This document shows, piece by piece, positions 27,972 through 64,000 of a stretch of DNA of 64,000 nt. The translations under genes and the position numbers were made by a program. Position 1 is the stretch's first letter. Each line of letters starts with the position of its first letter. This DNA is from Thermoplasmata archaeon (GTDB lineage Archaea > Thermoplasmatota > Thermoplasmata > Thermoplasmatales > Thermoplasmataceae), in contig WAQW01000003.1 in assembly GCA_015520045.1 (NCBI GenBank), positions 42,101 to 106,100 of the forward strand, read 5' to 3'. The notes beneath the pieces were generated by a model. The model saw only the letters and a program-made list of their open reading frames with translations, had not been told where the DNA came from and ran no database searches.

Positions 27972-29446
<1,475 letters not shown>

Positions 29447-62314: not shown

Positions 62315-62556
62315 CTATTCCCCACCTTTTTCATTTTTCTTTATAAGTCCCTATGCCCTTACTTTAATTTATCTATGAAATATAAAACCTCAGTCATGGA
62401 AAATAAATAAAATTCGCTCTCGTGTATTCCAAACCATCTCAGAATAAATACCCCACACATCTTTTCATTGGAAGGGATTATTAAAGGTTTTAATATGTCA
62501 TGAAAAAAGTTCTTTTGACCACGTTGACATGGTGATTATTGCAAGATATACGGAGA

Positions 62557-62607
62557 GGTGGTCGAACCATTTCCTGACCCGAGAGGTCGCCAATGAGATT
62601 GACCACC
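62557..62607 (+). ncRNA. candidate guide-loop hairpin of an IS110 bridge RNA
   Basis: GGTGGTC(62557-62563)/GACCACC(62601-62607) outer stem, inner TGACC/GGTCG stem, about 11-nt loop strands on each side; lies upstream of the IS110 transposase. Confidence 0.4.
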
Positions 62608-62711
62608 CTTCGCCTTTTCATGGTAGAATGAAACAGGGGTGAATAGAAGAATGTCGAGTTATCTCTGACTTTAAACTCTCACACACCACACAGGAGGTGG
62701 TTGTAATATAT

Positions 62712-63872
62712 ATGGGAATGGTGGCATGAGAATGGCGTATACATAACGGAACTGGAAGATAATGGAGATGTGAAGGTACATCATGAGATTGAGAATGATG
62801 AATCTGCATGGACAGAGTTCAGGGATCATTATCTTTCCCTGAAACCTGAGATTTCCCTGGAGGTATCAACATCTGGAAAATACATTGCAGGAATGTTGAG
62901 GGACATGGGATTCTCCATCCACATGGCAGATCCTTCCAGACTCTCCCTTATATTCATTCTGCAATGGAAAATGATAGGGAGGATTCATACAGGTTAGCAA
63001 AACTTCTCAGATTGGGAGAATTACCGGAGGTGTATCTTCCTTCCCGGTATTCCGATGATCTCAGATCCGTAAGGTACAGGAAATCACCTGGGGAGGAAAT
63101 AACAATGCTCAAGAACAGGGTTCTTGCGATACTCTCCTCTGCAGGTATCAGGATCAATGCAACAGACATATTCGGGAAGAGGGGAATGGTAGCCATATTC
63201 AGATCTGCAAATAATCTTTCCACCTCACAGAGGGTTGTCCTTAATGATCTGATGGATAGGATTACCTATCTCATGAGAAAAGAATCAACAGTGGAGGATG
63301 AGATATCCAGATCTGCCATGAATGACAGGAATGTGGATCTCCTCATGACAATTCCGGGTATTGGCATATATTCTGCTGCTGCCATAACATCAGAGATAGA
63401 TGACATATCAAGATTCAAAACAAAGGAGAAACTTGCTTCCTATGCAGGATTGGTACCGAAACAGAATCAGTCCGGTACTGTGGATATAAGGGGACATATA
63501 ACCAAACGTGGACCATCAATGCTGAGATTTATCCTCGTGAATGCAACACATACGGTTATAAAATATTCAAAGAGGATGAAGAAGAAATACCTCAGTCTTG
63601 TAAGGAGGTTGGGAAAGAACCGTGCAATAGTTGCAATTGCCCGCATCCTCATAGAAACAATACATGTAATGCTTTCAAGGGGCATGGAATACATAGATCA
63701 GATGGATTCCCTTACTGAGAGAAAGAGGATTGCCATGAGCGTAAGGGCAAGAAGGCCTTTCCAGAGTATATCCATCGAGGATCAAATTAAAAATCTGATG
63801 GATGTCCGGAAGGAAAGACAGAGAAGAGCAAGAAATATGGAAAAGATAAATAACCCGGAGATGATCATATGA
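62712..63872 (+). pseudogene. IS110-family (DEDD) transposase, frameshifted N-terminal domain
   Basis: ITELEDNGDVKVHHEIEN...LEVSTSGKYIAGMLRDMGFSIHMADPSRLSLIF, then frame change to MENDREDSYRLAKLLRLGELPEVYLPS...; Transposase_20 core MTIPGIGIYSAAAITSEIDDISRFKTKEKLASYAGLVPKQNQSG. Confidence 0.85.
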
Positions 63873-63970
63873 CTGTCATAGAACTTTTTTCATAGAAGAA
63901 GTGGTCTCCAAGAACATTAAGGGGATATTATAAATGCAAGGATGAGATAGAGGAAATGTTTCAGGAGAGG

Positions 63971-63990
63971 TATCCTTTATAAATACACAA
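63971..63990. repeat. 20-bp exact repeat TATCCTTTATAAATACACAA, copy 2
   Basis: Identical to 39779-39798. Confidence 0.8.
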
Positions 63991-64000
63991 AATATGGGAC

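What the first reader, a model, noticed from the sequence alone, without database searches (positions are those of the whole stretch)
62557..62607. Candidate IS110 bridge-RNA guide loop upstream of the transposase
Seen: GGTGGTC - GAACCATTTCC - TGACC CGAGA GGTCG - CCAATGAGATT - GACCACC. That is a 7-bp outer stem, an internal loop of about 11+11 nt and a 5-bp capped inner stem (one G-U). Known: IS110 bridge RNAs are encoded in non-coding ends and use internal loops with left and right guide strands. A second loop is less clear; partial hairpins occur at TTTCAT-GGTAGA-ATGAAA (about 62617-62633) and GAGTT...AACTC.
Basis: partly seen in the sequence, partly recalled or inferred. Interest (0 to 1): 0.65.

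Follow-up and report, generated by a model that had tools for sequence, protein, structure and literature searches.

The report
Archaeal transposon's RNA targeting guide
The hairpin is the target-recognition loop of a guide RNA carried by a jumping gene of acid-loving archaea; in relatives its variable loop letters match the DNA on either side of each insertion, although this particular copy's own enzyme gene is broken.

Summary
The hairpin is real, at exactly the stated coordinates, and folds better than all 200 shuffles (z -3.6). It is the target-binding loop of a bridge RNA (seekRNA) of an IS110/IS1111-superfamily element (62495-63898) in a Thermoplasmata MAG.

A covariance model finds the RNA in 40 of 117 genomes of the order. 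The stems covary (17 of 40 pairs change on both sides), while the two loop strands are the most variable part.

Across 60 copies the 3' loop strand matches the left flank; across 26 copies the 5' strand is complementary to the right flank (0 of 20,000 shuffles for either).

The window's copy is a relic: its transposase lacks the first catalytic Asp and is frameshifted. Its 5' strand still pairs with the adjacent right flank.

By ends and guide order the family is IS1111-like (11-14-bp subterminal repeats, 7/3 termini, top-strand guide first), yet the RNA lies upstream of the transposase, as in IS110. One sublineage has its ends swapped relative to RNA and gene. Expression was not tested.

The parts
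62495..63898 (+). IS110/IS1111-superfamily element, left-end bases to right-hand core AG (relic copy)
   Evidence: End comparison among copies in the same genome and relatives
62500..62513 (+). Left subterminal inverted repeat ATGAAAAAAGTTCT
   Evidence: Exact 14-bp reverse complement at 63880-63893
63880..63893 (+). Right subterminal inverted repeat AGAACTTTTTTCAT
   Evidence: As above
62495..62499 (+). Left-end bases ATGTC, read by the right donor guide in relatives
   Evidence: Covaries with RDG across copies
63894..63898 (+). Right-end bases AGA and core AG
   Evidence: Match LDG ATAGAAG; right boundary from other copies and from empty sites
62516..62672 (+). Bridge RNA (seekRNA) homology region
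   Evidence: Covariance model R1, 127.8 bits; copy was in the training set
62520..62545 (+). 5' stem-loop, degenerate in this copy
   Evidence: Helix 1 of A1, 86% of cells paired in the family; not folded in this copy
62551..62612 (+).
   Evidence: Folds z -3.6; helices 2 and 3 covary
62564..62574 (+). Right target guide (RTG), pairs with the top strand right of the core
   Evidence: 7 of 8 non-core positions pair with 63899-63906, one G-U; family statistics
62590..62597 (+). Left target guide (LTG) CCAATG plus core AG
   Evidence: AATGAG matches the empty site ATAAATGAG|AAGTGGTCTC in L010; family statistics
62614..62658 (+). Donor-binding loop, partly decayed in this copy
   Evidence: Helices 4 and 5 of A1; inner stem mostly unpaired here
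62617..62621 (+). Right donor guide (RDG) TTCAT; family form GACAT
   Evidence: 3 of 5 match to left-end ATGTC in this copy, 5 of 5 in most relatives
62642..62649 (+). Left donor guide (LDG) AATAGAAG, equals right end plus core
   Evidence: Matches ATAGAAG at 63892-63898; covaries in relatives
62697..63872 (+). IS110-family transposase pseudogene
   Evidence: Stop 62727-62729, first catalytic Asp segment lost, frame change near 62950
63899..64000 (+). Right flank: 3' end of a Mutator-type transposase gene, the insertion target
   Evidence: Uninterrupted copies L008-L011; Pfam Transposase_mut

Best explanation
The hairpin is the target-binding loop of a bridge RNA encoded just inside the left end of an IS110/IS1111-superfamily element of Thermoplasmatales archaea. 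In intact relatives the RNA would be transcribed and bound by the DEDD-Ser transposase (inferred). The 5' loop strand pairs with the top strand to the right of an AG core in the target, and the 3' loop strand with the bottom strand to its left (shown by covariation). A second loop pairs in the same order with the element's own joined ends: its 5' strand with the left-end ATGTC, its 3' strand with the right-end ATAGA-AG (shown by covariation). The transposase then exchanges strands at the shared AG core, so the element leaves as a circle and enters a site matching its target loop (inferred from IS621 and ISEc11). The window's copy sits at the 3' end of a Mutator-type transposase gene and is now a relic.
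For: Compensatory stem changes: 17 of 40 pairs two-sided, 90.4% of cells paired, 0 of 500 shuffles as high. RNA found in 40 of 117 genomes of the order. Loop strands are the most variable columns, p about 1e-9. Left guide against left flank 3.15 versus 2.03 of 6, right guide against right flank 4.65 versus 3.04, each 0 of 20,000 shuffles. A scan without preset columns puts RNA 80/79/78 with left -1/-2/-3 and RNA 57 with right +1 on top. Donor loop covaries with both ends. Window copy: 7 of 8 pairing with its right flank, reached by 128 of 28,786 sites. Transposase belongs to IS110 and is a sequence relative of IS621 and ISCro4.
Against: No transcript or binding data. Related copies are not independent, so shuffle counts overstate certainty. 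The right-guide match needs offsets of -1 to +2 and is weak within subfamily B (310 of 5,000 shuffles). The window's present left flank does not match its guide and lacks AG. The window's RDG matches its left end at only 3 of 5 bases.
Confidence: 0.93

Rival explanations
1. The hairpin is a cis-acting mRNA leader (attenuator or ribosome-binding-site control) of the transposase and has nothing to do with target choice.
For: It lies between the element's end and the transposase start, close to the GGAGGTG signal; upstream RNA structure regulating IS110 transposases is known from other elements (reference list of PMC11208160: ISPpu9).
Against: A leader does not explain hypervariable loop strands that match each copy's own insertion flanks, or a second loop that covaries with both ends.
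Confidence: 0.03
2. The loop strands resemble the flanks because the element copied target letters into the RNA after insertion, or because related copies sit in related sites; the RNA does not guide anything.
For: Some copies share both guide and flank by descent or by targeting the same conserved site (L115, L117). Matches are partial in many copies.
Against: The same RNA is found at different sites in one genome (L069, L086, L087, identical guides, different flanks), which suits a guide with tolerance and not copying. Strand sense and core overlap are those of known bridge RNAs. Both loops show the pattern, and no copying mechanism is known.
Confidence: 0.03
3. The hairpin is a chance inverted repeat in a decayed sequence.
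For: This copy is decayed, and its 5' stem-loop and donor loop do not fold as in the family.
Against: 0 of 200 shuffles fold as well; the hairpin is conserved with compensatory changes in relatives.
Confidence: 0.005

Closest known systems
IS1111-group elements with seekRNA (ISEc11, ISPa11, ISKpn4; PMC11187229)
   Same: Subterminal inverted repeats of IS1111 length, 7 bp/3 bp outside the repeats, top-strand target guide 5' of the bottom-strand guide, DEDD-Ser transposase
   Different: There the non-coding region is downstream of the transposase; here it is upstream, and the downstream region is 1-24 nt in most copies. Archaeal, about 24-26% identical to the IS4321-type transposase
IS621 and IS110-group bridge RNA (PMC11208160, PMC11208158)
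   Same: RNA upstream of the recombinase; 5' stem-loop, then target loop, then donor loop; left and right guides in internal loops with a shared core dinucleotide; related recombinase
   Different: IS621 has 2-3-bp subterminal repeats, core CT and the left target guide first (order as stated for ISEc21 in PMC11187229); here the repeats are 11-14 bp, the core is AG and the right guide comes first
ISMtsp17, ISHvo10 and ISAcp5 (exceptions named in PMC11187229)
   Same: IS1111-type elements whose long non-coding region is upstream or on both sides; a Haloarcula relative fetched here (L216) has both, 198 and 211 nt
   Different: Those are single listed exceptions, with no guide assignment for them in the passages I read; here a whole archaeal clade has the upstream layout, with both target and donor guides assigned

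Membership tests
IS110/IS1111 superfamily (bridge-RNA recombinases) | Transposase with DEDD_Tnp_IS110 and Transposase_20 domains, DEDD residues and catalytic Ser | tested here: met
   Both Pfam domains and NCBIfam transpos_IS110 in relatives; invariant D5, E52, D90, D93, S272 in A3. The window copy itself has lost the first Asp
IS110/IS1111 superfamily (bridge-RNA recombinases) | Structured non-coding RNA in one element end, with internal loops | tested here: met
   Covariation, model search
IS110/IS1111 superfamily (bridge-RNA recombinases) | Loop strands complementary to target and donor around a shared core | tested here: met
IS110/IS1111 superfamily (bridge-RNA recombinases) | RNA expressed, bound by the transposase and required for movement | not testable with these tools
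   No transcript or biochemical data available
IS1111 group | Subterminal inverted repeats of 7-17 bp | tested here: met
   14 bp in the window, 11-14 bp exact in most relatives; some relatives have repeats with mismatches
IS1111 group | 7 bp left and 3 bp right outside the repeats, one core copy included | tested here: met
   AG-ATGTC on the left and AGA on the right in subfamily A; swapped in subfamily C
IS1111 group | Top-strand target match 5' of the bottom-strand match | tested here: met
   RTG 5', LTG 3'
IS1111 group | Long non-coding region downstream of the transposase | tested here: not met
   About 208 nt upstream, 1-24 nt downstream in most copies. The source calls this usual, with exceptions
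IS1111 group | Transposase grouping with IS1111 transposases in phylogeny | tested here: inconclusive
   Tree without an IS621-type reference and with long branches; the archaeal clade is supported, its place is not
IS110 group (strict) | Non-coding region upstream of the transposase | tested here: met
IS110 group (strict) | Subterminal repeats absent or short, bottom-strand guide 5' of top-strand guide | tested here: not met
   Repeats of 11-14 bp; reverse guide order

The most novel reading that the evidence does not exclude
The Thermoplasmatales elements form a distinct layout of bridge-RNA elements: IS1111-type ends and guide order with the RNA upstream. In one sublineage everything between the subterminal repeats has been inverted relative to the end bases, yet the RNA still matches the swapped ends. 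Because end identity is read by RNA and the repeats are symmetric, element interiors could flip and remain functional. This would suggest one way in which bridge RNAs changed position during evolution.
Probability: 0.5. Interest if true: 0.6.

Novelty: new variant of a known kind. Interest (0 to 1): 0.47.

Why it matters
It gives sequence-based, multi-lineage evidence that bridge-RNA recognition of both target and donor operates in archaea and in elements with long IS1111-type repeats, whereas the published experiments use bacterial elements and, for IS1111 donor recognition, the published evidence I read is inspection of a few elements. The mixed layout and the swapped-end lineage bear on how IS110 and IS1111 diverged. 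Intact copies in relatives (for example three near-identical copies in the single-contig genome G105) are candidates for testing recombinases from a new branch. The window's own copy is a relic.

Tried and rejected
Rfam scan: only rRNA and tRNA. RNAalifold without a supplied structure gave a fold pairing the 5' stem-loop with the inner donor stem; the supplied five-helix structure has 17 pairs with two-sided changes against 11 there, and was used. Viral contigs: no relative found. Search for short non-autonomous derivatives between left and right ends in fetched loci: only matches inside the gene itself. Looking for predicted right ends in copies without a detected right end (L125, L129 and others): none found in the available sequence, which neither supports nor refutes. 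A transposase tree to decide between IS110 and IS1111 was inconclusive. The window's left junction as target was rejected: no AG core and no guide match.

Full report
OBSERVATION. Folded as RNA, 62550-62640 gives the described hairpin as both minimum-energy and centroid structure, -36.5 kcal/mol against -24.7 (sd 3.3) for dinucleotide shuffles, z -3.6, none of 200 as good. The outer stem is longer than reported: CGGAG/CTTCG at 62551-62555 and 62608-62612, around a bulged A. No Rfam family matches there.

SETTING. The window carries an archaeal 16S gene and reaches the end of contig C3 of a draft genome about 76% complete. Named relatives found with the same transposase are Thermoplasmata MAGs, E-plasma, clone ASS_A1 and Acidiplasma aeolicum. 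Downstream of the hairpin lies an IS110-family transposase gene (Pfam Transposase_20, E 3.7e-26). In this copy it is broken: reading from the GTG that fits the family's start, at 62697, a stop falls at 62727-62729. The segment that in relatives encodes the GLDVHK motif with the first catalytic Asp is replaced, and a further frame change occurs near 62950. Intact relatives keep all DEDD residues and the serine (positions 5, 52, 90, 93 and 272 of A3, all invariant). That these residues are catalytic rests on the known IS110 chemistry.

ENDS. Copies of the left and right ends in the same genome and in relatives diverge at sharp points. Outside the subterminal repeat, the left end is ATGTC preceded by AG in nearly all copies, and the right end is AGA followed by AG. 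I take AG as the core dinucleotide. The repeats ATGAAAAAAGTTCT and AGAACTTTTTTCAT are exact over 14 bp in the window. The layout of 7 bp (core included) on the left and 3 bp on the right is the one PMC11187229 gives for IS1111 elements. In many relatives the transposase stop codon lies within the right terminus, so the right non-coding end is 1-24 nt in most copies, while the left is about 208 nt.

RNA FAMILY. Twenty-eight homologous left ends were aligned. A structure with a 5' stem-loop, a target loop (outer and inner stem) and a donor loop (outer and inner stem) has 90.4% of cells paired, 17 of 40 pairs with changes on both sides and 69 such cells, against 85.4%, 9.1 and 23.2 in shuffles (0 of 500 as high). 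Slid versions fall to 33-43% paired. A covariance model finds the RNA in 40 of 117 genomes of the order and, in a sample of 400 genomes of the class, in only one genome outside the order. The window copy scores 127.8 bits, but it was a training sequence.

TARGET GUIDES. The columns of the two loop strands are the most variable of the RNA (1.66 against 0.55 bits, p about 1e-9), while the AG at the end of the 3' strand is nearly fixed. Flanks were extracted for 60 distinct copies on the left and 26 on the right. The 3' strand reads like the top strand of the left flank: 3.15 of 6 non-core positions match against 2.03 in shuffles within subfamily (sd 0.14; 0 of 20,000). The 5' strand is the reverse complement of the right flank: local score 4.65 against 3.04 (sd 0.25; 0 of 20,000), allowing offsets of -1 to +2. 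By subfamily, the left guide is significant in A, B and C; the right guide is strong in A (0 of 5,000), weak in B (310 of 5,000) and moderate in C (171 of 5,000). Without choosing columns in advance, a scan of all RNA columns against ten flank positions ranks RNA 80/79/78 with left -1/-2/-3 first (same letter, hence bottom-strand pairing) and RNA 57 with right +1 first (complement, hence top-strand pairing). Good single cases: L110 AGCCATCAT in guide and flank; L134 AGGTATTG; L047 GCACACAAG, 9 of 9 in end-based orientation; L133 GCTAAAG; L143 CATAAAG; and L130, whose flank core is AA and whose guide also calls for AA.

THE WINDOW'S OWN TARGET. The 5' strand pairs with the adjacent right flank at 7 of 8 non-core positions including one G-U; 128 of 28,786 comparable sites in the window do as well. 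The right flank is the 3' end of a Mutator-type transposase gene, whose uninterrupted copy in contig C28 reads ATAAATGAG|AAGTGGTCTC (L010). Its left half matches the window's 3' strand CCAATGAG over AATGAG; both halves together are reached by 15 of 28,786 sites. The left flank now present in the window does not match and lacks AG. A rearranged or misassembled left junction is plausible in this multi-copy, short-contig draft, but I could not decide this.

DONOR GUIDES. In the second loop the five bases on the 5' side are the reverse complement of the five bases between core and left repeat: GACAT with ATGTC (20 copies), GATTT with AAATC (15), GACAC with GTGTC (7), GACCT with AGGTC (1), GATAT with ATATC (1). 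Over 20 distinct pairs the match is 3.65 of 5 against 2.78 shuffled (0 of 5,000). On the 3' side, ATAGAAG, ATAGGAG or ATAGTAG equals the right end plus core in 24 of 27 copies. These are few independent events, partly fixed by subfamily. AGGTC/GACCT is informative because it breaks a pair of the RNA's own stem and restores pairing with the DNA end, as a guide predicts. In the window copy the right donor guide is TTCAT (3 of 5) and the left donor guide is intact.

MECHANISM. Shown by sequence: two loops whose strands match target and own ends, with defined strand sense and a shared AG core. Inferred from IS621 and ISEc11 (PMC11208160, PMC11208158, PMC11187229): transcription, binding by the transposase, circle formation, and strand exchange at the core.

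THE COPY TODAY. The transposase is broken, the 5' stem-loop and donor loop are degenerate, and none of the four RNA copies in the draft (C3, C48, C33, C56) has an intact transposase beside it. I put the chance that this copy is inactive on its own at about 0.95; whether an intact copy elsewhere in the missing quarter of the genome could move it is open.

CLASSIFICATION. Ends, 7/3 asymmetry and guide order are those of the IS1111 group; the RNA's position is that of the IS110 group. PMC11187229 mentions a few IS1111-type elements with upstream or two-sided non-coding regions, so the combination is not without precedent. Here a whole archaeal clade has it (tree). In the sister clade my repeat search places the region downstream (L237, L249), by one heuristic only. 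I call it a new variant of a known kind, not a new mechanism.

SWAPPED ENDS. In subfamily C (L042, L043, L045, L047, L100) the end next to the RNA is CTACT-ATGAAAG and the far end is CTTTCAT-GACAC-CT: the reverse complements of the right-type and left-type ends of subfamily A. Donor guides (GACAC; ATAGTAG) and target guides fit when the element is read from its ends rather than from its gene. An inversion between the symmetric repeats would produce exactly this. Five copies support it, so I treat it as a well-founded lead.

Noticed in passing
L042, L043, L045, L047, L100: A sublineage of the family has its two termini swapped relative to the RNA and transposase, while donor and target guides still fit in end-based orientation.
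   Followed up: partly
L082 and L083, left flank: Two copies with almost the same target guides (…GTATTCG / ACTTTAAG) sit about 15-20 nt downstream of tRNA-Ser and tRNA-Val genes; two further copies with this guide pair (L115, L117) share another left flank.
   Followed up: no
L113, L114, L162: A subfamily-A element is inserted exactly at the end of a subfamily-C element; its left guide CTCAGTAG shares the AGTAG of that end.
   Followed up: partly
L237, L243, L249, L250: Related Thermoplasmatota elements in which the repeat search places the long non-coding region downstream of the transposase, so its position seems to have switched within this archaeal group.
   Followed up: partly
L005, L013, L014, L105: The draft genome holds solitary left or right element ends beside unrelated sequence, suggesting further decayed or truncated copies.
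   Followed up: no
window 27975-29446: An archaeal 16S rRNA gene; no 23S or 5S match was reported anywhere in the window at gathering thresholds, so the rRNA genes appear unlinked here.
   Followed up: no
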